Below are positions 7,580-63,649 of a stretch of DNA of 63,835 nucleotides, piece by piece. Source of the stretch: a virus; IMG/VR virus record IMGVR_UViG_3300042922_000736, positions 1-63,835 of that record; one strand, 5' to 3'. The first letter of the stretch is position 1, and each line of letters begins with the position of its first letter. The notes below the pieces were generated by a model. The model did no database searches. It saw only the letters and a program-made list of their open reading frames with translations, and was not told where the DNA came from. The position numbers were made by a program, and so were the translations under genes.

Positions 7580-8316
7580 TTCGCGCTCCTCTTGATGATG
7601 CCGATGATGAAAGCGATGAGCGCCGCCCATCCCGTTGGGGCGGGCGCGGCGGGCGCCTTGACATCGTCCGGGGTGTAATAGTCGCGACCGGGCCGCGGCC
7701 CGCTTACGGTCACGACGGGGTCGGCGGGCTTGTCGCCCGGCTGCGGGGCGGCGGCAGCACCCCAGCCCGCGGCTTTGAGCGCGGCCAGGAAGTCCCGGTG
7801 ATATCCGGCGATCGTCGCGGCCTTGTCCGTGCCGTTGATGATCTTGCGCGCGTTGACGGGGTCGTCAATCTGCGCTGAGAAGTAGTGCACCAGCTTGCGG
7901 CCCGTGAACCACCCCCCGACCATGCCGCGGAACATGATGGCCGCCGCGATGCCGGGATCGAGCGCGAGGTCGAAGTTCTTCAGGAGCTTGCCGCCGAGCC
8001 CAAGTTCCTTGTCGGCGCGCTCGTAGTTGTCGTCCCAGGTAAGCTGCACGTAGCCGCGGCCATACGGAACCTGCCCGTACTTGCCCTTGACACCGTACTT
8101 GCGGCCCTTCCCTCGCCCATACTCGGCGATAGGCTGCATGGTGCAAGCGGTCTCCCAATAGGCGGTCGCCAGCGCATAGGCGACGTGACGCACGTCAGAG
8201 ATGCCGTATTTGGCCGCCCCGTCGAGGATGGCATTGAGGCCATCCACCTGATCTTGCGAGAGCGAGCCGCCAAACGGCTTCGCGCGCACGCGGTCGAAGA
8301 AGACCGTGCGGTCCAT
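7576..8316 (-). CDS. endolysin, glycoside hydrolase family 19-like
   Basis: 246 residues. The lysozyme/chitinase-19 type domain spans about 1-185, with likely catalytic glutamates E55 in A-Y-W-E-T and E65 in I-A-E-Y, then Y-G-R-G-Y-V-Q-L-T-W. It cuts the glycan backbone of peptidoglycan. A proline/alanine linker (about 190-230) leads to a hydrophobic C-terminal helix (GWAALIAFIIGIIKRSAK), unusual for this family; it could tether the enzyme to the membrane. Directly upstream of the holin-like genes. Confidence 0.88.
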   Translation of the reverse strand: MDRTVFFDRVRAKPFGGSLSQDQVDGLNAILDGAAKYGISDVRHVAYALATAYWETACTMQPIAEYGRGKGRKYGVKGKYGQVPYGRGYVQLTWDDNYERADKELGLGGKLLKNFDLALDPGIAAAIMFRGMVGGWFTGRKLVHYFSAQIDDPVNARKIINGTDKAATIAGYHRDFLAALKAAGWGAAAAPQPGDKPADPVVTVSGPRPGRDYYTPDDVKAPAAPAPTGWAALIAFIIGIIKRSAK

Positions 8317-8370
8317 GTTGGATTCCGGGTTGTGTGTGGGGTGGTGGGCGCTAGCGCTGCTGCGCCTGCG

Positions 8371-8766
8371 TCACGGCTCGTCGTGGATGATCTGGAGGTG
8401 GAGCCCGCTCATGATCGACATGAAGAAGTCGTAGGGCTCGATTGGCGGGTCGAAGTTCGTGTTGAGCGACATCGCATTGCCAAACGCCAGCACATCGGCA
8501 TCAGTGGTGCCGTACTCGGTGAGGTCAACGCCCCCGGCCAGCGTGTCCAGAGCGCCCACCTTTAGGTGAGCCAGCGTCGTCCAGACCGGATCCGATGCCA
8601 TGGTGTGGCACGCCCAATGCGTCGGCGGCTCCTGCCCGTTAGCAGACAGCTTAATCGACAGCGTGGTGCCTGGCAGTCCGCCCCGGTCTTCGCCGATGGC
8701 GCAGAAAAAGCGGTTGCCGGCGTCGCGGTGTTCATTCGCCACGACGATCGCAGTGGATGTCAGCAT
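8371..8766 (-). CDS. hypothetical protein of the tail-fibre region
   Basis: 131 residues, no domain recognised. It lies between the lectin-fold fibre gene (1-bp overlap) and the endolysin, so it may be a fibre-associated or assembly protein. Confidence 0.5.
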   Translation of the reverse strand: MLTSTAIVVANEHRDAGNRFFCAIGEDRGGLPGTTLSIKLSANGQEPPTHWACHTMASDPVWTTLAHLKVGALDTLAGGVDLTEYGTTDADVLAFGNAMSLNTNFDPPIEPYDFFMSIMSGLHLQIIHDEP

Positions 8767-9599
8767 CAGAAGGCTCCGGTCTTAGCGTTTACCCACGCCT
8801 CAGCCATGGCGAGCGTGGATGGTGTCGTCGCAGCGCCACGAACGATAAGGGAATAAAGCCGGCCGGTGATTGGCGCGGAGGTTCCGGCACGGCGACCGAT
8901 ATAAAGGGGGTAGTTGCCGTAAGGTCCGGTCCCCTGGTCGCCCGTGGCAGCCGCACCTGCCACGCCATTGATGCGAACAAGGTTGGTATCGCCGGCAACA
9001 TCGGCCTGACAGGTGATCACGGCGGTGACGGGCGCCGCCCCAACGGATCGTGATGCGCTTACGTTCGTCGTGCCCCGACTGAAGAAGGTGGCGTTGGTGT
9101 TGGAGGCCGCCGGAGGGATCGCTAGCAGGAAGGCGCCGTTGTTGGATGTCGCGACGGCTGACAACTCGACCACGGCGCCGAACGCCGAGTCACTCAGTTT
9201 GCGATAGCCGACGAACACAGACATCTGCGACGTCGATGTAAAGTTGATGGCGCTGGTGACAAGGAAATCATCCAGCCCGTCAAACGCGAGATAGTACCGA
9301 CCGCTGCCGTCCTGCTGCAGCGTTGGCTTGAACGACGCGTTCGATTGCGCGGCGTGATGCCCGCGCCCCGATTTATCGAGGATGCGTCCGACCGCCTGTC
9401 CAACTGCAGTGACGGGCATCGTGCCGGCGTCGTCCTGGAACAGGGTAGAAAAGTCTGAGGGGTCGTACCAGGCGCCCTGCTGCCCAGATGCGAACAGCAC
9501 CGACGGCGTCCACCAGATGGTGCGTCCGGCACATCGCATCTCGAGCACGCTGAGGCCCGCGAGGCGGATTTCGTGCCCTACAGTAAGATCAACCTGCAT
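8766..9599 (-). CDS. tail protein with LamG/concanavalin-like lectin fold
   Basis: 277 residues. The stretch G-A-W-Y-D-P-S-D-x-S-T-L-F-Q-D, followed by [19 protein letters not shown], is typical of phage tail proteins that carry a C-terminal concanavalin/LamG beta-sandwich. Such proteins bind sugars on the cell surface. It follows the collagen-like fibre gene and is probably a receptor-binding component. Confidence 0.7.
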
Positions 9600-10254
9600 T
9601 CGCCACTCTCACATAGACGTGGAGCGGGTTGCTGTCCGGCGCAGGCGGCCAGCTTGCGTTTTCGACTAGGAATACTTCGATGCTTGCGCCGTTGGCGCCG
9701 TTAGCGCCCGCAGGCCCTTGGGCGCCGTCAGCACCGGCGGGCCCCTGCTCGCCTTGAGGGCCCTGTTCGCCGTCTGCACCCGCTGGGCCAGTCTCGCCCT
9801 GTATACCCTGGATGCCCTGAATGCCCTGCGGTCCCTGCTCACCCTGGATACCTTGCTCGCCCTGCGCGCCGGTAGCGCCAGTCGCTCCGGGCGGACCCTG
9901 AATGCCAGGCACCTCGACCGTCACGGCGACGTCGCCGTCGTACTCGCCCGCACCGCCGACATCGACCCAGCCGGCGCCGATCTTCTCCCGACTCTCGCCG
10001 AGGATGCGGAAAGCGTCGAACTTGGTGCGCCTGCCGAGTTTGAGCGACAGCGCCAGGGCTTCGTCGTAGGTCCACACCACGCCATCGGGCAGCGCGAGCG
10101 CGAGCTCGCCAGTCTCGGTCGACAGTGTCACCGGCGCACCGGCGCCTGACAGCACGATCTCGACTTCAGAGCCCGTCAGATCCACGTCGGCGAACGTGAT
10201 GGGCACCGGCGGGGCATTGGTGTCGCGATAGATGCGGATCACGGTCGTGGACAC
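9589..10254 (-). CDS. tail fibre with collagen-like repeats
   Basis: 221 residues from GTG 10254, preceded by CTGGAG. The first 120 residues form a beta-rich head-binding part. About 25 G-x-y triplets follow ([15 protein letters not shown]...) which fold as a trimeric collagen-like shaft, then a short C-terminal beta part. Tandem terminators lie just upstream, so it probably depends on readthrough or a local promoter. Confidence 0.8.
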
Positions 10255-19045: not shown

Positions 19046-20908
19046 CTATATCCCCTGCACGTTCCGTCTTTTGGCGTTTGCGACGCTGGTCACGACCATG
19101 CGCGGAATCTCGCCGCGCAACTGCGCCAGCTGCTGTTGCACACGCGCGAGGCCGGCTTCGTCGGCGCCACGCGCGTCGATGCTGATTGGCATGGACACGG
19201 TGACGCTGCCCTTGCCGCTGCCCGCCATGGCGTGGTTCGGCACGATGCGGCCCGCCACGTCCGGCACGAACATTTCCGGGCCGCGCTCGCCGACGCGATA
19301 GATCTGGCCTGCATTGACCGGGCCGCCGACGGCCTTGGAGCCGCCGAAGGAGCCCAGGAGCGAACCCAACAGCCCACCAGGACCGCTGCCGACGGGATTG
19401 AACAGGCTATCCAGCGCCATGCCGAGCAGCTTGTCGCCGACCTTGGCCAGCGCATTGGACAGCGCCTCTGCCGCCGACACGCCGTTCTGCATGTCGGTGA
19501 TGAAGCCGCCGAGCACGTCCTTGCCCAAGTCGTTCAAGTCGGCGAGTTGGCCGACGAGGTATTCCTGCTGCTCGCGCAGCCGCTCTGCCTCAACCGTGGC
19601 TTCGGCATAGGCCGTCGCCAGCGCATCGATGTTCTGCCGGACTTCCGGCGTGATCTCGATCTTGGCGCGCTCAGCGGCGTTGAGCAGGTCCGCCTCAGCG
19701 CGGGCCTTCTCCATCGCGAAGCCGTAGTCATTCACCAGCGGATTGAGCGTGGCCTGGACCGACGTCTCGTACTGGAGCGCTTGCGTGCGCTCCTGAATCA
19801 TCCGCGTCATGCGCTCGTAGGCGTCGAGCTTATCCTTGCCCGGCGCCGGCTGGAACGCCGGCTTGCCGGGATTGACCGTCACCTTGGTGGGGGCGCCGCC
19901 CGACATGCCGAAGGCTTTGTCCCACTCCGCAGACTGAGCGTCGCTAAGCGATGCGCCTTGGCCGAGGCGGAGCTTAAGGTCTGCAACGCCGCGCTGGTCC
20001 ACGGCGAAGGCGTCGCCGAACCGGCCATTCGCGATCAGGTTGTAGTAGACGCTCAGTTCCTTGACGATATCGCGAAGCTGCGTCGCTGCCCCGACCATGG
20101 CGCTGATCGCGCCGGTGTCGGCCATCGTCTTGTAGAGCTCGGTGATAGAGTTATTCAGGCGGTTGATTTCCGCCGTCAGTGTGCTTTTGCGATCGGTGCC
20201 GTAAAGCTCGACCAGCTTATCAGTCAGGCGAGGAATGAGCTCCGTCGCGGGGACGACGCCCTTCTCAAGCAGCTTGCCGAGTTCTTGCTCGGTGACGCCA
20301 AGGGCCTGAGCCGCAAGCCTGAACGCCCCAGGAAGGCGCTCGCCTAGCTGCCCGCGGAGCTCTTCCGAGCTTACCGTGCCCTTCGATATCATCTGCTGGA
20401 TAGCCAGCAGCGCGCCTTGCGTGTCCTCTGAGCTTTTGCCCAGAGACGCCATCGCGGACGACACCGCTTCAAATACGCGGCGGGTCTCCTCGCCCTCCAG
20501 CGCCGTGCCCTTGGTAGCAGCCAGCAGCGACACGTAAGCCTGCCCGGCCGACACAACCTCCAAGCCCAGCCGTTCGCTGGTCTCGGTCAGAAACTTCATC
20601 TCGCGTGCGGCAGCGTCGGAGTCGCCAGTGATAGCCTTCAGGCTACTGCCGAGGCTGTCGACGCTTTGCACCGTCTTTAGGAAATCCTGCGCCGCGAAGC
20701 CAACGCCGAGACCGGCCAACAGCCCCCGCCCCATGCCGGACACAGACGCCGCGAAGGCATCCATGCTGCGCTTGGCGCCAGCGAACCTGCGCTCGATATT
20801 GCGCGTGCTGCGGTTTACGTCGCTGTCGAGCCTGTCTAGGGCGCGCTTTATTTGCCGGGTGTCGGCGCTTATGGTAAGTACCAGCGCCTCAAGATCATTG
20901 TTCGCCAT
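19046..20908 (-). CDS. tail tape measure protein
   Basis: 620 residues, short for the family, predicting a tail of about 90 nm if the usual 1.5 angstrom per residue holds. Residues 60-235 carry the tape-measure N-terminal domain (S-V-D-S-L-G-S-S-L-K-A-I-T ... S-S-E-E-L-R-G-Q-L-G-E-R-L-P-G-A). Coiled-coil regions follow, and a glycine-rich part (V-G-G-P-V-N-A-G-Q-I-Y-R-V-G-E-R-G-P-E-M-F) is near the C-terminus. It is followed by hub genes and preceded by tail chaperones. Confidence 0.9.
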   Translation of the reverse strand: MANNDLEALVLTISADTRQIKRALDRLDSDVNRSTRNIERRFAGAKRSMDAFAASVSGMGRGLLAGLGVGFAAQDFLKTVQSVDSLGSSLKAITGDSDAAAREMKFLTETSERLGLEVVSAGQAYVSLLAATKGTALEGEETRRVFEAVSSAMASLGKSSEDTQGALLAIQQMISKGTVSSEELRGQLGERLPGAFRLAAQALGVTEQELGKLLEKGVVPATELIPRLTDKLVELYGTDRKSTLTAEINRLNNSITELYKTMADTGAISAMVGAATQLRDIVKELSVYYNLIANGRFGDAFAVDQRGVADLKLRLGQGASLSDAQSAEWDKAFGMSGGAPTKVTVNPGKPAFQPAPGKDKLDAYERMTRMIQERTQALQYETSVQATLNPLVNDYGFAMEKARAEADLLNAAERAKIEITPEVRQNIDALATAYAEATVEAERLREQQEYLVGQLADLNDLGKDVLGGFITDMQNGVSAAEALSNALAKVGDKLLGMALDSLFNPVGSGPGGLLGSLLGSFGGSKAVGGPVNAGQIYRVGERGPEMFVPDVAGRIVPNHAMAGSGKGSVTVSMPISIDARGADEAGLARVQQQLAQLRGEIPRMVVTSVANAKRRNVQGI

Positions 20909-20924
20909 TCAACCCGCCACGCGC

Positions 20925-21131
20925 ATGGGCTTCGAAGATTTAACCGCCGGGCAAGTCGCAATGCTGGTGCTGTACTTCGCGCCGGCATGTGTTGCCGCGC
21001 TGCGGAAGCACCATCAGCAGAACGCCATTTTCGTGCTGAACTTCTTGCTGGGCTGGACGGTGCTCGGGTGGATCGGCGCAATGGTGTGGGCCGCGACGGC
21101 AACTCAAGGTCGCCGCCGCTTCGTGCCGTAA
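20925..21131 (+). CDS. superinfection-immunity-like membrane protein
   Basis: 68 residues from ATG 20925. Two hydrophobic helices flank a charged turn, with the family motif F-V-L-N-F-L-L-G-W-T-V-L-G-W-I-G-A-M-V-W-A, as in T4 Imm-like superinfection immunity proteins. Those sit in the inner membrane and block DNA entry of related phages. It is on the plus strand inside the minus-strand tail operon, filling the gap between tape measure (start 20908) and chaperone extension (stop 21132). This suggests independent expression in the lysogen. No clear promoter was found and the ribosome site is weak. Confidence 0.75.
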   Translation: MGFEDLTAGQVAMLVLYFAPACVAALRKHHQQNAIFVLNFLLGWTVLGWIGAMVWAATATQGRRRFVP

Positions 21132-21317
21132 TTACCCATACCGCCGCTTCAGTTCCTCAACCCGCTCCCGCGTCGGCGCCTCGCCCTTCTTCTTGACGCC
21201 ATTGGCTTCGCACCAACCGTCATAGGCTTCGAAGAGCTCGGTGAGCGTGGCGCGCCAGAACTGGTCCGGCGACCAGCCTAGGTTCCCGAAGGCGAATTGC
21301 TGCCAGAGCCGCCAGGG
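21132..21317 (-). CDS. tail assembly chaperone, frameshifted C-terminal extension
   Basis: A second reading frame overlaps the end of the chaperone gene and encodes P-W-R-L-W-Q-Q-F-A-F-G-N-L-G-W-S-P-D-Q-F-W and about 40 more residues. This is the pattern of the GTA-type second chaperone (P-W ... G-L-S-P-x-x-F-W). It has no start codon of its own. A -1 slip at the C4 run (plus positions 21315-21318; CCT to CCC) would fuse it to the upstream product. Confidence 0.7.
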   Translation of the reverse strand, partial: PWRLWQQFAFGNLGWSPDQFWRATLTELFEAYDGWCEANGVKKKGEAPTRERVEELKRRYG

Positions 21318-33957: not shown

Positions 33958-34212
33958 CTCGGTTGCGCTGCTCGGCATATTGCAACCGAGCTACCAAAAA
34001 ACCGAGCGTGTAAATATATACTCCCTCCCCGGATTCATCACCCAAATAGGAAGAAATATATATGTATTGTGTTTTTACACGCTCTATATATATGTTATTG
34101 ATATTGTTGAAGAAATGGCGTGCAAATTTTTTGCACGCTCGTTGCACGCTCCGCACGCTCGCCGACGAGAGCGTGCAAAACAGGCCGAGCGTGCAAAATG
34201 AAATGCACGCTC
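33958..34212. repeat. iteron array and AT-rich segment: putative replication origin
   Basis: Repeats of the element TTGCACGCTC in both orientations at 34004-34014, 34073-34084, 34118-34126, 34127-34140, 34141-34151, 34152-34160, 34169-34180, 34187-34198 and 34203-34212. Between the first two and just after lies A/T-rich DNA with TATATA runs (34015-34117). A 9-bp inverted repeat (33958-33966 with 33981-33989) flanks one side. It stands directly beside the primase-helicase gene. Confidence 0.7.
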
Positions 34213-36579
34213 TTACGCGGCCTGTTTTAGGCGTATTCTGACACCGTTGGCCGACGCCTCCGGCGCGTGGATATCGCCCGCCAGCGTGAGACGCTCCAGG
34301 GCGGATTTCACCATCCTGTCGTCGGCCTTTGAGATGCCCTTGCGGCGCACGAGATGGGACAGCCGCATGGTGCCGTCCTCGGCCCGCCGCAGATTGGCGA
34401 CGATAGCCTTGCATAGCTCTTCGAACTGCGAGCCGGCCATATAGTCCGCGATGCCCGCGTCGATGCAGTCTATGGAGCGCTGTACGATGCCATAGCCCCA
34501 CTCCACATCGTCAACATCCACCGACGGCTTAGACGGGTCTCGCGACAGTGCGCGTATCGTCGCCAACTTGATGACGTGCTCTGCCGTTCGGCCCATCAGC
34601 CCCTCGTGGGCGCCATGGTCCTCAATTTGGGATATCTGCCAGTCTTCAATGGACAGCCAGCGCCGCTCTGCCTCGGTACTGGCCCACGGCACCGTGTAGA
34701 GCGTCGGACGCATCACCGCGTTGCGCCAGTTCACCTTGGCCACCGTACCGCCTGGCAATGCCTCGTGAGCCTTGCTGATGGCATCGATAAGCGAGGGCGG
34801 CGTTATCTGCTGCGGGGGTGCGTCCTGCCGTTCTGGGCGCTGCTTGACCTCCACGACGATGAGGCGGGCAATGAAGCCGTCCGACAGGGTCTCCTCGGTC
34901 AGGCCGCGATAGAACGTGGTTGGCGTCGACATGCCAAGGAGGGACACCGTAGGGCAATGAATCGGCTCAGTTGACGACATGCGCTGAGGATCCGCGTGCT
35001 CCTTCCCAGACCATACGCCGTTGGACTTCGAGAACACCTCGAGGAGCACCTTGCGGATGGTCTTGGCCCACGCCGAGGATCCATTGCCAGTGACGGACTG
35101 GAGCACGACGCCCATTTCGTCCCACGGCATCACGAAGACCGGATTGGAGCGGCACACCTTCTCGATCGCGCTGCCGGATGTCACCTCGCCGGGACCGATT
35201 AGGTATTGCTTGCGCGTGTCCATGGCTAGGGTGTGGAGCGACTTCTGGGGGTGCTCCTTGCCAAAGCCTGGGCCGGCAATGCCGACCATGTACGTGTTCA
35301 GCCCAGCACCAGTCGGCCCTATGGCCTGCCTTCCGAACATCGTGCCGACGAATGAGGCCGCGGCCATCACCGCAAATTCCGGCACGGGCCGACGGCCGGT
35401 GTCCATGATCCACTGCGAAATCAGTTCGATGAGTCCGCCGGCGACCTCCGGGGAGAACGGATCAAGCTTTGCCCGCGGCGCGCGCACCGGGGCGATTTCT
35501 ACCACGTCGTCGTCGGGCGCTGCCGGGACGATTTGCTGCGGCTGCACAACCGCGATGTCGGCGCGGGCTGCGTTGGCCTTGGCGCTCAAGATGGCGGCGC
35601 TACGCATAGCCCCAAGGGTCCACTTGTCCTCCTTCGGGGCGAACCCTGTTCGCTCGATAAGCCACTTATAGGCAACCTCGTGATACGAGGTGCAGTTGGC
35701 CGCCATGACCAGGTCGATGGGAGTGTAGGGGCGGCTCGCGCCCCAATCCGTGATGCCGTCGGGGTGAATGCCGACGTTGAAATTCTCCACCCCTCGCCAG
35801 AAGGCTCGCGCTCTGTAAGTGCCATCGCGCTGGCGCTTGGCCTCCCGCCCGAAAAGATCAGGTACCCACATGTCGAGGTGCTCGAGCGCGTGGCTGTTCG
35901 CTTCGCGCCAGATGGTGTCGCCGAATATCTCCTCACCAGACCGCCTAGCCTGGCGATGCTCCTGCACCGTTCCGAACGGGCGCAGCGCATCCGCCAGCCT
36001 GTCGGCGATATCGTCCGGCAGCTCCGGCAATTTGTCGATGGGCGTATCCATCAACGTGTCGTCGGTCAGCCACTCGTAAGGCTTACCCGTGTCGGGGTGC
36101 AGCGTCGGCGGGAGGACCGTTTGGCGGCCGTGGGCGAGCAGGTCGATGACGCGGCTCTCAAAGCCGCCCGGCAATATGAGATTGAACGGCCTGTTGACGA
36201 TGGCCTCAGAGCCGCGGAAAAACGCGCTATATCCCTTGTTGCCGCGCTTCTTCACGGTGTCTGTCGTCGGCAGCACAGCTTCGATCGCCGCACGCAATTC
36301 AGCGTCGTCGGTATCCAGGTCGATGACCTTCAGTGCCTTGTCGATGGCCACGCAGACGCCGGCGTCCTCCCATCGGGACCAAATGTTGGTCTCTATTTCG
36401 GTCGGCAGACGGTCGCAGAACCGGCTCCAGTCCATGTCGCCGTACCACTGGCCATTCGACATAGATCCTGGGCGCTTGCTGCCGGGCATCACGGGGATGG
36501 CGGCATAACCCATGTCTACGAGCTCGGCGCCGCAGCGGGAATAGGGGGAGTTGGTCATGGTGGCATTGCCGCCGAGCAT
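34213..36579 (-). CDS. primase-polymerase / DUF3987-type helicase fusion
   Basis: 788 residues from ATG 36579, overlapping the upstream stop (TAATG). The N-terminal primase-polymerase part has paired aspartates at D88 and D90 in V-I-D-L-D-T-D-D. A central region resembles primase C-terminal domains. From about 400 a DUF3987-like ATPase has a P-loop-like G-I-A-G-P-G-F-G-K (near 430) and W-D-E-M-G. It would prime and unwind phage DNA at the origin just downstream. Confidence 0.8.
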   Translation of the reverse strand: MLGGNATMTNSPYSRCGAELVDMGYAAIPVMPGSKRPGSMSNGQWYGDMDWSRFCDRLPTEIETNIWSRWEDAGVCVAIDKALKVIDLDTDDAELRAAIEAVLPTTDTVKKRGNKGYSAFFRGSEAIVNRPFNLILPGGFESRVIDLLAHGRQTVLPPTLHPDTGKPYEWLTDDTLMDTPIDKLPELPDDIADRLADALRPFGTVQEHRQARRSGEEIFGDTIWREANSHALEHLDMWVPDLFGREAKRQRDGTYRARAFWRGVENFNVGIHPDGITDWGASRPYTPIDLVMAANCTSYHEVAYKWLIERTGFAPKEDKWTLGAMRSAAILSAKANAARADIAVVQPQQIVPAAPDDDVVEIAPVRAPRAKLDPFSPEVAGGLIELISQWIMDTGRRPVPEFAVMAAASFVGTMFGRQAIGPTGAGLNTYMVGIAGPGFGKEHPQKSLHTLAMDTRKQYLIGPGEVTSGSAIEKVCRSNPVFVMPWDEMGVVLQSVTGNGSSAWAKTIRKVLLEVFSKSNGVWSGKEHADPQRMSSTEPIHCPTVSLLGMSTPTTFYRGLTEETLSDGFIARLIVVEVKQRPERQDAPPQQITPPSLIDAISKAHEALPGGTVAKVNWRNAVMRPTLYTVPWASTEAERRWLSIEDWQISQIEDHGAHEGLMGRTAEHVIKLATIRALSRDPSKPSVDVDDVEWGYGIVQRSIDCIDAGIADYMAGSQFEELCKAIVANLRRAEDGTMRLSHLVRRKGISKADDRMVKSALERLTLAGDIHAPEASANGVRIRLKQAA

Positions 36580-54186: not shown

Positions 54187-54498
54187 TTGACTGGTCGGTG
54201 CCGGAACGAGAGCGCACCCCATAAGCCGCCAGCCCGTCCAGTCAACCCTACGCGAAGGCGGCCAGAGCCAGTGTGCACCCCATGAGCACGACGCCGCCTT
54301 CGCAACTGCATTCAACCGGCCGGCCGGAGGGCAAACGCACCCCGATAGAGTACCGCCGGTCGGTTGAACCACTTCGAGAGACGCGGGCCAGTGAGAGCTC
54401 GCACCCCAGCGCAAGAACGCCCGCGTCTCTCGTCACCCCATCGGAAGGCCGGGCCATTCGAAATCCGAACGCCAAGTGCACAGCGCCCGTGCCTTCCG
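54187..54498. repeat. hairpin array, group 1: five units with 30-nt loops
   Basis: Stem pairs: H1 54187-54194/54238-54245, H2 54252-54262/54293-54303 (11 bp perfect), H3 54311-54324/54355-54368 (14 bp, one G-T), H4 54375-54388/54419-54432 (14 bp perfect), H5 54442-54454/54485-54498. Loops (H1 54202-54231, H2 54263-54292, H3 54325-54354, H4 54389-54418, H5 54455-54484) are all 30 nt. Loop positions 11-20 carry the core NCGCACCCCA; H5 has the divergent CCGAACGCCA. Cores are spaced 61-66 bp apart. Confidence 0.9.
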
Positions 54499-54520
54499 CC
54501 CCTAACCAGAGGAGAACATC

Positions 54521-55141
54521 ATGAGCCTCGCCCACGACTTCAACCCGCCCCGCAGACACACCCGATACGCCAAAGCCGAGACACTTATCGGCGTAGCGGA
54601 GCGCATGATGCGCGAAGCCAGCGGTGACGTCGACGCCGCCACTGAGAAGATGACGAACTACGTCCTGAACAAGAAGCGCCTCACGGAAGAGGCGGTGCGG
54701 ATGGCGTGCCGCAACATGCTCGGCGAGACCGTCCGCAGCGAACGCCGCACGATCGATACCCTCATGGCCGACCCCGGCGCTACCGGCCCGAAGGCGACGG
54801 CTAGCAAGTCGAAGTCCTACCAGGAGCGCGTCGCGCACATCTTCAGCGGCAGCGCGGAAGCAACCCGCCTGCGGCTGTCGAGCCTCGGCCAGCACGTCCG
54901 CGAGGCGCTGCTCGACAAGCCCTATGTCATCGACGGCATCCGTCGCCCGCTGCGAGACCACATCGGCGCGGACATCGTGAAGTACGCCGGCGAGCACCTG
55001 AGCAAGGGCCAGACCATGGTACGCGAAGCCAGGTTCCTCATCGCCATCGGCAACACGGCCGGAAACCGCAAGGTCGGTGACGCCGTGTCCGCCGAGGAAG
55101 CCATTCGCCTCCGTATTGAGGCCGACAAGACGCCGGTGTGA
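54521..55141 (+). CDS. unknown protein of the hairpin-array locus
   Basis: 206 residues; start has GAGGAG upstream, directly after H5. Helical, basic N-terminus (P-P-R-R-H-T-R-Y-A-K-A-E-T-L), a central K-S-K-S-Y-Q-E-R-V, and a hydrophobic/charged second half. No family recognised. It is transcribed together with the array and the IS110-like gene, so a shared role is likely. Confidence 0.6.
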   Translation: MSLAHDFNPPRRHTRYAKAETLIGVAERMMREASGDVDAATEKMTNYVLNKKRLTEEAVRMACRNMLGETVRSERRTIDTLMADPGATGPKATASKSKSYQERVAHIFSGSAEATRLRLSSLGQHVREALLDKPYVIDGIRRPLRDHIGADIVKYAGEHLSKGQTMVREARFLIAIGNTAGNRKVGDAVSAEEAIRLRIEADKTPV

Positions 55142-55148
55142 GCCGGCA

Positions 55149-55521
55149 GGGGCGGGCCAGCCGGGCTTCGTATCCCATGAAAGAAACGCCCGCCCCGAAC
55201 CTTTTGCATGTGGTGGCCAATAGAACTTCGCACCCCACGAGCGCTGTGCCGCTACATGCAACCCCACCCGCCGCAAGGCGGTGCCTGCCGGGCCAGCAGG
55301 CCGCCGCACCCCATCCACCAGACGCCCGGCAGGCAACCAATACCGAACGGCAGGGGCCAAGGGCACCGCGTATCCCAGGCTGGCACCGCCCCGCCGTTCG
55401 GTTCCTAACGTGAGTGGTGGCGGCCACTGTGCACACGCACCCCATCGGTCGCTCGCCGCCGCCACTCACAACCCATTCCGCCGGCCAAGCGAGACATGCA
55501 CCCCATTCCGTCCGCGCCGGC
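55149..55521. repeat. hairpin array, group 2: six units with 30-nt loops
   Basis: Stem pairs: H6 55149-55157/55188-55196, H7 55204-55217/55248-55261 (14 bp, two G-T), H8 55282-55293/55324-55335 (12 bp perfect), H9 55342-55357/55388-55402 (one bulge), H10 55410-55424/55455-55469 (15 bp, one G-T), H11 55480-55485/55516-55521 (short). Loops are all 30 nt. Cores: CGTATCCCA in H6 and H9; CGCACCCCA in H7, H8 and H10; TGCACCCCA in H11. A small CCGCC-GCAA-GGCGG hairpin (55268-55281) sits before H8. Confidence 0.9.
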
Positions 55522-55542
55522 ACGCAACCCAGGACAAACGCC

Positions 55543-56577
55543 ATGTACTCCGAAATTAGCAACAACCCCGCCGAGATTGCCGCCGCCACGACCCGGCGCC
55601 GGCCCCGTAAAGCTGACGGTGCGGCCACTTCTGCAGCGCGACCCATAAATAGGACGCCCGCCGTCAGCCCCCCTATCGACGAAACCGTGGCCGACGGTCA
55701 TGCGCACCCCTATGGAACAGCGCCCGGTTTCGTCGACCCCGATTGCACGCCGACCTACGTGCCGACCGAGGCCGTCACGGACCTAGTCGCGCAGATACGC
55801 AACATGCACAAGCTGCGGCAGGGGATGATACGGGCCAAGAACCGCATCGTGCTGCAGGGCATGGCGTGCGTTCGGCACGCGATCCACCAGCCCGAAGACT
55901 ACGAGAACGACGCCACCAAGAAGGCGCTGCGTGAGCGCGCCGACAAGATGTACCGCGAAGCTGCGGCCGACGAGGGCCATCAGTTCCACCCCAACATCAA
56001 GCCGTACTTGATGGCCGCTGCTCCGCTGGAAGAAGCCGCAGAGACCTACGCCAAGCGACTCGAGAAGCTGGCCAAGCAGTTGCCGGTCTTCGCATGGGTG
56101 CAGTCCGTCAAGGGGCTCGGCACGGTCAGCTTCGCGACCATCGTCGGCGAGGCTGGAGACATCGGCACCTACCGCGGGCCGGAGGGGCTGTGGAAGCGCA
56201 TGGGGCTAGCCGTCATCGGTGGCAAGGCGCAGGGCAGGCCCGGCGCGGGGGCCACGTCGGAAGACTGGATAGCCCACGGCTACAGCGGCGAGCGCCGTTC
56301 TGTGGCGTGGAACGCCCGCAACGGTCTCATCTTGGGCATGGGCCGCTGGCGCCCCGCGTTCGGTGAGGATGTCGACGCAAACCCTGAACTGACGCCGTAT
56401 CAGCGGCTGTTCGCGAAGCGCGCCAGGCTCGAGTGCGAGAAGCTCGGCAAGCCGGTGACTGAGGCGAAGACGGGCAAGGAGTCCTACAGCGCCCACGCCA
56501 TCGCACGGGCCATGAGGTTCGTCGAAAAAAGGATGCTCAAGGAGCTCTATCTGAATTGGCGCCGGGCTTCGGCCTGA
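55543..56577 (+). CDS. IS110-transposase-like C-terminal domain protein without RuvC domain
   Basis: 344 residues from ATG 55543 (AGGA 9 nt upstream). Residues 1-70 are low-complexity and overlap hairpins H12-H13; a later start near 55803 is possible. A helical part follows (about 75-175). Residues 178-260 carry a Transposase_20-like helix-hairpin-helix segment: F-A-W-V-Q-S-V-K-G-L-G-T-V-S-F-A-T-I-V, then E-A-G-D-I-G-T-Y and L-W-K-R-M-G-L. This domain contains the catalytic serine in IS110 enzymes; S near 246 in Y-S-G-E-R is a candidate. The DEDD RuvC domain is not seen. It may bind the hairpins around it. Confidence 0.7.
   Translation: MYSEISNNPAEIAAATTRRRPRKADGAATSAARPINRTPAVSPPIDETVADGHAHPYGTAPGFVDPDCTPTYVPTEAVTDLVAQIRNMHKLRQGMIRAKNRIVLQGMACVRHAIHQPEDYENDATKKALRERADKMYREAAADEGHQFHPNIKPYLMAAAPLEEAAETYAKRLEKLAKQLPVFAWVQSVKGLGTVSFATIVGEAGDIGTYRGPEGLWKRMGLAVIGGKAQGRPGAGATSEDWIAHGYSGERRSVAWNARNGLILGMGRWRPAFGEDVDANPELTPYQRLFAKRARLECEKLGKPVTEAKTGKESYSAHAIARAMRFVEKRMLKELYLNWRRASA
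55612..55736. repeat. hairpin array, group 3: two units inside the 5' end of the IS110-like gene
   Basis: H12 55612-55625/55656-55668 (8 bp plus 3 bp, loop 55626-55655, core GCGCGACCCA) and H13 55676-55691/55722-55736 (11 bp plus 3 bp, loop 55692-55721, core GCGCACCCCT). The loops are again 30 nt. Confidence 0.85.
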
Positions 56578-56585
56578 AGCCCGGC
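56561..56585 (+). terminator. strong hairpin at the end of the IS110-like gene
   Basis: A perfect 10-bp stem GCCGGGCTTC/GAAGCCCGGC with a 5-nt loop that spans the stop codon. No T-run follows, so it may pause rather than end transcription. Confidence 0.5.
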
Positions 56586-56754
56586 GGGGCCAGCGTAGAG
56601 CCGCACCCCAGAGGTAGCGCGCCCCGCCAACCCCCATTGCCTGCCGGGGCCGAAAAACGTCCGCACCCCATCCATGTTGCGTCACGGCAGGCAACCCTAA
56701 GCGACGACGGGCCACCGCTCTCGCGTATCCCACTCCCGGAGCGCCCGTCGTCGC
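56583..56754. repeat. hairpin array, group 4: three units with 30-nt loops
   Basis: H14 56583-56590/56621-56628, H15 56637-56650/56681-56694 (10 bp plus 4), H16 56701-56712/56743-56754 (12 bp perfect). Loops 56591-56620, 56651-56680 and 56713-56742 are 30 nt with cores CCGCACCCCA, CCGCACCCCA and GCGTATCCCA. Ends 25 bp before the DnaA-like gene. Confidence 0.9.
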
Positions 56755-56779: not shown

Positions 56780-57637
56780 ATGACCACCCTATCCCAAGTC
56801 ATCACTACCGCGCCCGACGGGCTCCGTCCCTTCCTGCAGTTCGTCGAGCGCCGCGGCAACAACGACAACGACATGCGCGCCTCGACGCCGCTGCTGTTCG
56901 CGACGTATGCCCCGCCTAATGCGCCTGCACTGAGAGTCAGAGTCGTCACCGCGTCCAAGCTCGGACGCATCGGCATCACGGAATGCCTGCACGAGGAAAC
57001 CACGCCGCAGATTTACGTGCCGGCGGCGCAGCTGTCGCAATTCCTCCCGACGCCGTACCCCATGCGCAAGAAGGTGCGCCGGCCTCGCGGAACGCCCACG
57101 CAGCGGATCCACGCCGAAGCGCGAGTCGATGCGGCGCAGAGGACAGCGGCTCTGATGGAGCAGTTTTCTGTGGACTGCGCCGAGGTAGCGCGTCGCATCG
57201 CTAGCGCTTCCGGCATCCCGATAACACATCTATTCGGGGCGTCGCGCGAGAGACTGCTTACCTGCGCCAGACGTTCCGCCTTGGGGGTGATCGCCTCCAG
57301 AAACCACGGCCTGTCGCTGCCAGTCTTGGGGCGCGCCATCGGCTGTCATCACACCACAACGCTGCACAGCCTTCGGGAAATAGGCCTGCACGCCTCCGTA
57401 ACTGGCGAGTTCGACCTGCCGTACCTGCGGGCGCTGTGGCTCAAGGGGCGAATGCCGATCGGCCATGAGCCGGGGCAGATGCCGGATGACGTAGCCGCCC
57501 GGCTTGGGCGGTTCGTCACGATCGACGGCGGCGAGCTCGAGCCGAGCAACTGGACAGAATTCCGGCGCTACCTCGGCCTCGCCATTGCGCGGGCCAGGAT
57601 CGTCGCCGAGCGGGAGAGACTGCAATGCGCAGCCTGA
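56780..57637 (+). CDS. protein with DnaA domain IV-like DNA-binding region
   Basis: 285 residues, ATG preceded by AGAGG. Residues about 130-205 match the C-terminal DNA-binding domain of DnaA: L-F-G-A-S-R-E-R-L, A-R-R-S-A-L-G-V-I-A, H-G-L-S-L-P-V-L-G-R-A-I-G, H-H-T-T-T-L-H-S-L. No AAA+ ATPase part is present. It may bind the repeated cores (GTATCCCA, GCACCCCA), loosely similar to DnaA boxes, as regulator or initiator. Directly after group 4. Confidence 0.7.
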   Translation: MTTLSQVITTAPDGLRPFLQFVERRGNNDNDMRASTPLLFATYAPPNAPALRVRVVTASKLGRIGITECLHEETTPQIYVPAAQLSQFLPTPYPMRKKVRRPRGTPTQRIHAEARVDAAQRTAALMEQFSVDCAEVARRIASASGIPITHLFGASRERLLTCARRSALGVIASRNHGLSLPVLGRAIGCHHTTTLHSLREIGLHASVTGEFDLPYLRALWLKGRMPIGHEPGQMPDDVAARLGRFVTIDGGELEPSNWTEFRRYLGLAIARARIVAERERLQCAA

Positions 57638-62220: not shown

Positions 62221-62576
62221 TGCGGCACGACAATGATAACATCGGGCCCGATACGCCGCTGCGACTGGAGGCTGCCGCGGCAATGGCGTTCCCCGGAGGC
62301 GGCATGACCGCCAAGGGCCTGAGACGAGAGCACCAGCGCGGCCGACTCGTGATAGAGCGGGTGGCCGGCAAGGACTACACCACGCTTCGCGCGATAGAGG
62401 AGATGCGAGAGCTATGCCGCGTCCAGCCAAGGGCACCCGAATCTGGCTTCGTCCCGCGCGGTACGACAAGGCCGGCAATGTCACCCACCACGCAACCTGG
62501 GTCATCCTCGACGCTGGTAAGCAGCATCCCACGGGATGCGTTGCTGGAGAAATTGAGGAAGCGCAAAGCGTCCTAG
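62220..62576 (+). CDS. excisionase-like protein
   Basis: 118 residues from ATG 62220 (TGATG). Residues 14-60 form a winged-HTH excisionase pattern ([24 protein letters not shown] ... G-R-L-V-I-E-R). It overlaps the integrase by 163 bp. It would bend att DNA to favour excision. The tail is low-complexity. Confidence 0.72.
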
Positions 62577-63649
62577 CCAACTACATTCTTGAGCGTCACA
62601 AGCCGAAGCGCAAAGAGCAGGATATTGAGTCTATCGATGTAGCTGACGTGCTCACCATCTACGACTCCGACTGCCGCGAGCGGCAGGCAAACAAGCGCAC
62701 ATTTGATGCCATGATGGAACGCCTCACCTTGTGGTGGGGCGGGAAGATGCTGTCCGACGTCACAGGCGAAACCTGCCGAGCCTATGTCGAATCGCGAAAG
62801 GCAGCCTATCGCGAGCGACATGCCAAGCGATCGTCAGAAAAGGCACCAAAGAAGACCGGCGGTGAGGGCGGCGCACGCCGCGACCTCGAGACGCTGCGCG
62901 CGGCTATTGAGCATCACGCCAAGGAGGGCCTGCACCGCGGCATCGTTCGTGTGGCTCTCCCGCGCTCCGGCGGCCCGAAGGATCGGTGGCTGACCCGCTC
63001 AGAAGCGGCCAGGCTGCTTTGGACGTGCTGGCGTGCACGCGAGATGCAGAAGCGGCATCGTGGCCCGGACAAAGGCAGGGTCGTCGCCACCAAGAAGCGC
63101 CCCCTGCGCCACCTCGCGCGGTTCATCCTCATCGGGCTCTACACCGGCACACGCGCCGCGGCTATCTCTGCCGCCTCGCCGCACCGCGGTGAGGGGCGGT
63201 CCTACGTGGATCTGGAGCGGGGCATCTTCTACCGGCTCGCGGAAGGTAAACGCGCCAGCAACAAGCGCCAGCCGCCCGTGCCGCTGCCGGACCACCTTCT
63301 GGCTCACATGCGGCGCTGGGCCGAGCTCGGCATCGCCAAGGAGCACTTCGTCGAGTACGACGGCAAGCCGGTGAAGTCGGTGAAGGTCGCATTTGCCTCT
63401 GCCGTCGAGAAGGCGGGCTTGGAGGGGAACGTGACACCGCACACGCTGCGTCACACCGCAGCGACGTGGCTGATGCAGAACGGCGCTGACATCTGGTCAG
63501 CCGCTGGCTTTCTCGGAATGTCGCCGGAACTGGTGGAGAAGACCTACGGACATCACCACCCGGACTACCTGCGAGCCGTGTCGAAAAAGTTCCGCAAAAG
63601 TTCTACCGCCAACGTTTCGCCAATGAAACCGGCGCAAAAGGCGGGATAG
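62414..63649 (+). CDS. int: tyrosine-family integrase
   Basis: 411 residues. Catalytic residues are visible: R247 in Y-T-G-T-R-A-A-A, H343-T-L-R346-H, and Y378 in V-E-K-T-Y-G-H. The usual LGH is LGM at 367-369. A core-binding SAM-like domain spans about 70-175. It recombines attP with the tRNA attB, giving the 48-bp repeat flanking the prophage. It starts inside the excisionase gene. Confidence 0.93.

What the first reader, a model, noticed from the sequence alone, without database searches (positions are those of the whole stretch)
54187..56754. Array of sixteen hairpins with different stems but exactly 30-nt loops and a fixed core
Seen directly: sixteen inverted repeats (five, six, two and three units) within 2.6 kb. 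Every stem is different in sequence, yet pairs over 6 to 16 bp, often with G-T pairs where perfect pairing fails. The loop is 30 nt in all sixteen. Loop position 1 is always C, position 13 always G, positions 18-19 always CC, and positions 12-20 read CGCACCCCA (or CGTATCCCA in three) in most. Stem sequence is free while length and core are fixed. That is the mark of a structure recognised by its shape plus its core. Cores repeat about every 60-67 bp within groups. The units sit between and inside three co-directional genes. I know of no named element with this layout. Possible roles: processed small RNAs, ssDNA hairpins bound by the neighbouring HhH protein, or an initiator array. Which is inference.
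Basis: seen in the sequence. Interest (0 to 1): 0.96.

Follow-up and report, generated by a model that had tools for sequence, protein, structure and literature searches.

The report
Phage guide-RNA hairpin array (TIGR-TasA)
The sixteen hairpins are a set of phage-encoded two-part guide RNAs of the recently discovered TIGR-Tas kind, read by a neighbouring nuclease-free protein, and comparison with about fifty related phage loci suggests that the guides are rapidly swapped, come from protein-coding DNA and overlap by one base on their target.

Summary
All sixteen hairpins are present with 30-nt loops, far above chance, and about fifty related phage loci carry the same kind of array. Each unit is variable stem, box C (CCA), 9-nt spacer A, box D (YG), 4-nt linker, box C, 9-nt spacer B, box D. 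The gene at 55543-56577 is a nuclease-free Nop-domain Tas protein: it matches NCBIfam TIGR_Tas, and a family profile and model match TasR and TasH.

Three results appear new. (1) Between related phages, stems and flanks are conserved while the spacers have been replaced in place, down to random identity. (2) Spacer pairs carry a codon-phase signal, and the last bases of A and B are complementary, so the target is probably 17 bp of coding DNA with a shared central base pair. The published nuclease TasR reads 18 bp without overlap. (3) An unnamed gene directly upstream of TasA is conserved in most loci. No natural target was found. RNA processing and DNA binding are inferred from the published family, not shown here.

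The parts
54187..54245 (+). stem-loop unit 1 (bulged stem); spacers GAACGAGAG / TAAGCCGCC
   Evidence: found by the core, missed by the strict detector
54252..54303 (+). stem-loop unit 2; spacers GAGCCAGTG / TGAGCACGA
54311..54368 (+). stem-loop unit 3; spacers GAGGGCAAA / ATAGAGTAC
54375..54432 (+). stem-loop unit 4; spacers GTGAGAGCT / GCGCAAGAA
54442..54498 (+). stem-loop unit 5; spacers TTCGAAATC / AGTGCACAG
54521..55141 (+). gene A (206 aa), unnamed conserved partner; homologs in 42 loci, nearly always directly upstream of TasA
   Evidence: no Pfam family, no PDB fold match
55149..55196 (+). stem-loop unit 6; spacers GCCGGGCTT / TGAAAGAAA
55204..55261 (+). stem-loop unit 7; spacers ATAGAACTT / CGAGCGCTG
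55282..55335 (+). stem-loop unit 8; spacers GCAGGCCGC / TCCACCAGA
55342..55402 (+). stem-loop unit 9; spacers AGGGCACCG / GGCTGGCAC
55410..55469 (+). stem-loop unit 10; spacers CTGTGCACA / TCGGTCGCT
55480..55521 (+). stem-loop unit 11 (short 6-bp stem); spacers AGCGAGACA / TTCCGTCCG
55543..56577 (+). TasA-like protein (344 aa): Nop/IS110-like RNA-binding domain, no nuclease domain detected; N-terminal part contains units 12-13
55612..55668 (+). stem-loop unit 12, inside the tasA reading frame; spacers CTTCTGCAG / TAAATAGGA
55676..55736 (+). stem-loop unit 13, inside the tasA reading frame; spacers ACGGTCATG / ATGGAACAG
56583..56628 (+). stem-loop unit 14; spacers GCGTAGAGC / GAGGTAGCG
56637..56694 (+). 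stem-loop unit 15; spacers AAAAACGTC / TCCATGTTG
56701..56754 (+). stem-loop unit 16; spacers CCGCTCTCG / CTCCCGGAG

Best explanation
This is a phage-encoded TIGR-TasA system of the stem-loop-array type. The array and its two genes are probably transcribed together (inferred from shared strand and layout). Each hairpin is released as a small guide RNA: the variable stem closes it, and the two box C/box D pairs (CCA with YG, one at the stem mouth and one in the loop) anchor it on a TasA dimer. Spacer A (loop 3-11) pairs with one DNA strand and spacer B (loop 21-29) with the other strand of the same site. Shown here by sequence statistics: unit architecture, RNA-strand bias, protein family, in-place spacer turnover, coding phase, and covariation of the two spacer ends. 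Inferred from these: a 17-bp target whose central base pair is read by both spacers. Inferred from published TasR/TasH/TasA work: processing and RNA-guided DNA binding. Most likely role, by inference only: because TasA lacks a nuclease, it binds and bends coding DNA of rival mobile elements and blocks transcription or replication, with spacers changing as rivals change.
For: Published class: PMC12045711 describes stem-loop TIGR arrays with two 8-12 nt spacers, box C/D motifs and palindromes in place of edge repeats, next to a nuclease-free TasA, with RNA processing shown for one locus. Unit model CCN-N9-YG-linker-CCN-N9-YG plus stem: 419 forward against 29 reverse matches over 54 loci, at least 3 units in 48 of them. 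Box D covaries between edge and loop positions: C/C 168, T/T 131, mixed 81. Protein: NCBIfam TIGR_Tas E 6e-19 against IS110 7e-8; all 50 homologs match TIGR_Tas; family profile hits TasR 9mty E 8.6e-20 and TasH E 8e-5; model with mean pLDDT 95 has TasR and TasH as its best PDB folds, then IS621. RNA strand: G-U 92 against A-C 28. Spacer turnover: L014/L017 stems 94%, flanks 82%, spacers 25-32%; 39 stem-matched unit pairs have 26% spacer identity; L013/L016 arrays are collinear with genes 90-92% identical. Guide register: coding phase z 5.0 only in the register A..rc(B) offset -1 mod 3; A9 complementary to B9 in 164 of 371 against 100.6 expected, z 8.1.
Against: No natural target was found: not in the phage's own genome, not in about 2.5 Mb of related phages, not by exact 17-mer scans of IMG/VR for two window units, and not above chance in 148 Rhizobium species genomes for three spacer pairs of a Rhizobium prophage. 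The TIGR_Tas score (68.9 bits) is below that model's curated equivalog cut-off of 100, as expected if the model is tuned to the nuclease members. Only 44% of pairs obey the A9/B9 rule, so either the base is often mismatched or the register is mixed. No expression or binding data could be examined.
Confidence: 0.88

Rival explanations
1. Same array and protein, but the guides act for the phage itself: TasA with its guides regulates host or phage genes, or aids integration or excision, instead of attacking rivals.
For: TasA lacks a nuclease; the TIGR-Tas authors raise regulation and integrase assistance for TasA; in RHph_X2_25 and here the module lies beside the repressor region of a temperate phage.
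Against: No site in the window matches any of its spacer pairs better than re-paired controls (run at gaps 0-2; one search covers the -1 register); three spacer pairs of the Rhizobium prophage have no match above chance in 148 Rhizobium genomes, its own host included; near-complete spacer replacement between close relatives is unexpected for fixed regulatory targets.
Confidence: 0.25
2. An IS110-type mobile element or its relic, the hairpins being bridge RNAs for recombination.
For: The protein shares the IS110 C-terminal region (phrog_4285 transposase E 9e-15; NCBIfam IS110 E 7e-8), and the model resembles IS621.
Against: No DEDD/RuvC domain was found; TIGR_Tas scores far better; each unit has one two-guide loop, not separate target and donor loops; 16 units belong to one protein.
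Confidence: 0.03
3. A DNA element: hairpins extruded as single strands or cruciforms, a replication initiator array linked to the DnaA-like gene.
For: The neighbouring 56780-57637 product has a DnaA domain-IV-like segment (PF08299 E 2e-5, below its cut-off).
Against: That gene has no relative in the other loci, whereas gene A and TasA recur; G-U over A-C 92:28 points to RNA of the coding strand.
Confidence: 0.02
4. The A9/B9 complementarity is a base pair inside the guide RNA and not a shared target base pair.
For: Complementarity between two bases of one RNA always allows this reading.
Against: G-U is not enriched at A9:B9 (66 against 61 expected), and the codon-phase signal, which does not use these bases, independently gives the same -1 (mod 3) register.
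Confidence: 0.25

Closest known systems
TIGR-Tas stem-loop arrays with TasA (Faure et al. 2025, PMC12045711; the Peromyscus leucopus gut contig)
   Same: Nuclease-free Nop protein beside clustered hairpins; variable palindromic stems; [quoted passage not shown] units in sub-arrays around the gene.
   Different: Here: a conserved unnamed gene upstream of tasA; units inside the tasA reading frame; evidence for in-place spacer turnover, coding-DNA origin and a one-base overlap of the two guides. The main text of the paper reports none of these; its supplements could not be read.
TIGR-TasR / TasH dual-repeat systems (9mty, 9vzx)
   Same: Same protein superfamily by profile and fold; 9-nt spacers; box C/D anchoring; tandem targeting of both strands.
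   Different: No nuclease domain here; stems in place of edge repeats; inferred 17-bp overlapping target against 18 bp with no spacer covariation reported for TasR.
IS110 / IS621 recombinases with bridge RNA (PMC11208158)
   Same: Shared RNA-binding region; hairpin with two guide segments reading opposite strands; guides that overlap at the centre (LTG pairs to bottom tT14-tA6 and RTG to top tC11-tC8, i.e. both cover positions 8-9).
   Different: No DEDD domain, no donor loop, arrayed guides.
Box C/D snoRNPs (Nop5)
   Same: Distant Nop-domain relation and box C/D naming, as argued in PMC12045711.
   Different: No fibrillarin or K-turn protein partner seen; DNA targeting inferred, not RNA methylation.

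Membership tests
TIGR-Tas, stem-loop array with TasA | Adjacent Nop-domain (Tas) protein | tested here: met
   TIGR_Tas E 6e-19 for the window protein, all 50 homologs match; TasR/TasH profile and fold hits. The window score is under the model's curated cut-off (68.9 against 100 bits).
TIGR-Tas, stem-loop array with TasA | Tandem units with two 8-12 nt spacers | tested here: met
   9-nt spacers in all 16 units and nearly all units of relatives
TIGR-Tas, stem-loop array with TasA | Spacers flanked by box C (CCA) and box D (UG-like) motifs that covary between edge and loop | tested here: met
TIGR-Tas, stem-loop array with TasA | Variable but consistently palindromic sequence in place of edge repeats | tested here: met
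   stems conserved or compensated between relatives
TIGR-Tas, stem-loop array with TasA | Transcription and processing into unit-length guide RNAs bound by Tas | not testable with these tools
   needs small-RNA sequencing
TIGR-Tas, stem-loop array with TasA | Guide-dependent DNA binding on both strands | tested here: inconclusive
   coding-phase and A9/B9 covariation support it; no natural target found
TasR / TasH nucleases | N-terminal RuvC or HNH nuclease domain | tested here: not met
   no nuclease family by Pfam or NCBIfam; the modelled core is Nop-like only
IS110 recombinase | DEDD/RuvC domain plus C-terminal transposase domain | tested here: not met
   only weak PF02371-like similarity, no DEDD match
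IS110 recombinase | Bridge RNA with separate target and donor loops | tested here: not met
   each unit has one loop
TasParB partner | ParB-like protein in operon with tasA | tested here: not met
   gene A has no Pfam match in five homologs and no PDB fold match

The most novel reading that the evidence does not exclude
Phage stem-loop TIGR-TasA is a two-protein, nuclease-free guide system whose spacer pairs are sampled from coding DNA, read a 17-bp site with a shared central base pair (between TasR and IS110 bridge RNA in design), and are replaced wholesale inside conserved hairpin frames by an unknown process that may involve the conserved partner protein.
Probability: 0.5. Interest if true: 0.8.

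Novelty: new member of a known kind. Interest (0 to 1): 0.66.

Why it matters
TIGR-Tas biology is open: its discoverers state that natural targets, the origin of spacers and the role of nuclease-free TasA are unknown. The set of about 50 phage loci gives handles on these questions: a target register to search with, evidence that spacers come from coding sequence, evidence of fast in-place spacer replacement inside conserved hairpin frames, and a candidate partner gene. RHph_X2_25, an isolated phage with a known Sinorhizobium host, carries the system and makes it testable at the bench.

Tried and rejected
Rfam: no family over the array. Self-targets in the window: none above re-paired controls. 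Targets among TasA phages at gaps 0-2 and at -2 to +7: no excess at any one gap; the slight rise every third gap reflects codon phase. A spacer pair shared by L015 and L017 gave 30 IMG/VR contigs, 25 with gap 0, many in one conserved portal-protein motif. I do not count this as a target: the arrangement was an early guess (gap 0), the motif is a conserved coding stretch, and a wrong-geometry control gave 9 hits. Window units at gap 0-2 gave 9 and 1 hits, about chance. Rhizobium genus scans gave none or chance-level hits (the first two also used the early gap 0-2 geometry). Gene A: no family, no fold. The DnaA-like gene was considered as part of the system and rejected. My first gap-0 geometry, derived from the TasR cleavage rule, was replaced by the -1 register.

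Full report
Observation. On dinucleotide-preserving shuffles of the region the count of 30-nt-loop hairpins is 10 against a mean of 0.44, and of strict box C/D units 15 against 0.01. Loop length 30 stands out against neighbouring lengths. Rfam has no family for it.

Neighbours. Gene A (54521-55141) has no Pfam match. The gene at 55543-56577 resembles IS110-type transposases in PHROGs (phrog_4285, E 9e-15). The gene at 56780-57637 has a weak DnaA domain-IV match. The window carries a tRNA-Met at its start, an integrase at 62414-63649 and repressor-like genes near 50-51.5 kb, as a temperate phage would.

Relatives. A single-protein search gave three viral loci, and the phage collection gave one record, Rhizobium phage RHph_X2_25; three of these four showed 30-nt-loop hairpin arrays around the homologous gene and L008 showed longer loops. 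With an alignment, 58 viral loci and one Rhizobium prophage were found. Loop length 30 is the commonest in most, with 34, 36 or 39 in others.

Identification. [quoted passage not shown] Written as a search model (CCN, 9 nt, YG, linker, CCN, 9 nt, YG, plus stem), it fits the window units and the longer-loop relatives; in L008 the extra loop length is a small hairpin in the linker. Over 54 loci it gives 419 forward and 29 reverse matches, and 48 loci have three or more. Box D covaries between its two places in a unit (C/C 168, T/T 131, mixed 81). In the published structure the G of box D pairs with the first C of box C; here that is the stem-closing C-G pair and the G13-C18 pair.

Protein. The window protein matches NCBIfam TIGR_Tas (E 6e-19) better than IS110 (E 7e-8), although under the curated equivalog cut-off. 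All 50 homologs match it, best E 1.6e-35. A profile of the family hits TasR (9mty, E 8.6e-20) and TasH (E 8e-5). A model of residues 66-344 (mean pLDDT 95) has TasR and TasH as its best folds, then IS621 and ISCro4. No nuclease domain was found, so the fitting name is TasA.

RNA or DNA. Among isolated non-Watson-Crick positions inside stems, G-U outnumbers A-C 92 to 28 on the coding strand. That favours RNA read from that strand.

Guide behaviour. Between related arrays the frame is kept and the guides are not: L014 and L017 share 94% of stem and 82% of flanking bases but 32% and 25% of spacer bases. L013 and L016 have genes 90-92% identical and collinear units with replaced spacers. Over 39 stem-matched unit pairs the spacers agree at 26%, the random level (a few of those pairs match a unit at a non-corresponding position). 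One spacer pair is shared by two phages. Replacement is thus in place and nearly complete. How it happens is unknown.

Guide register. Spacer pairs were scored under a codon-periodic model trained on phage genes. Only one phase relation between A and the reverse complement of B exceeds within-locus re-pairings: offset -1 modulo 3, z 5.0 (with context). Independently, base 9 of A is complementary to base 9 of B in 164 of 371 pairs against 100.6 expected, z 8.1, present in both box D classes; no other position pair exceeds z 2.7. G-U is not enriched there. Using only bases 1-8, the phase signal stays (z 3.4), in pairs that obey the rule and in those that do not. The simplest reading is a 17-bp coding-DNA target whose central base pair is read by both spacers. 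TasR was reported to have no spacer covariation and an 18-bp target. In IS621 the two target guides overlap by two bases (from the pairings given in PMC11208158).

Targets. None found. The window does not match its own spacers (the -1 register was covered). About 2.5 Mb of related phages give no excess at any one register, only the expected codon-phase ripple. Two 17-mer scans of IMG/VR gave no hit. Rhizobium genomes gave none or chance-level hits. An apparent portal-gene target for a shared spacer pair was set aside, for the reasons given under 'tried and rejected'.

Partner. Gene A homologs occur in 42 loci, nearly always directly upstream of tasA. The protein is mostly helical, has no family and no PDB fold match, and is not ParB-like by these tests. 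The DnaA-like gene is specific to this window among the loci examined.

Verdict. A new member of a known kind, with three properties of that kind that seem unreported in the main text of the discovery paper. The array, protein family, RNA-strand bias and spacer turnover rest on direct sequence tests. The 17-bp register is a strong statistical inference. Processing, DNA binding and the role against rival elements are carried over from the published family or inferred.

Noticed in passing
L009 (MW960032.1) 7738-8337 and 8749-9804: Rhizobium phage RHph_X2_25, an isolated phage with a known Sinorhizobium host, carries gene A and TasA as unannotated hypothetical proteins with a stem-loop array: a natural bench model.
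   Followed up: partly
window 56780-57637: DnaA domain-IV-like protein without an ATPase domain directly after the array; not found near the other TasA genes.
   Followed up: partly
L008 5487-6891; longer linkers also in L031, L032, L034, L037, L039, L066: Units whose loop linker is 7-13 nt; in L008 it forms its own small hairpin (for example CCCGCACGGG), which would extend the loop-side box C/D pair.
   Followed up: partly
L007 5513-6147, L014, L015, L022, L032: Units lie inside the apparent N-terminal reading frame of tasA, and in several relatives stop codons interrupt it; the true start codon and how units inside a gene are processed are unclear.
   Followed up: no
window 34129-34229: Cluster of perfect inverted repeats (AGCGTGCAAAA / TTTTGCACGCT, AAAACAGGCCG / CGGCCTGTTTT), unrelated to the array.
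   Followed up: no
window 20818-21285, - strand: ARAGORN reports a permuted tmRNA with an odd tag peptide, probably a false call; Rfam finds none.
   Followed up: no
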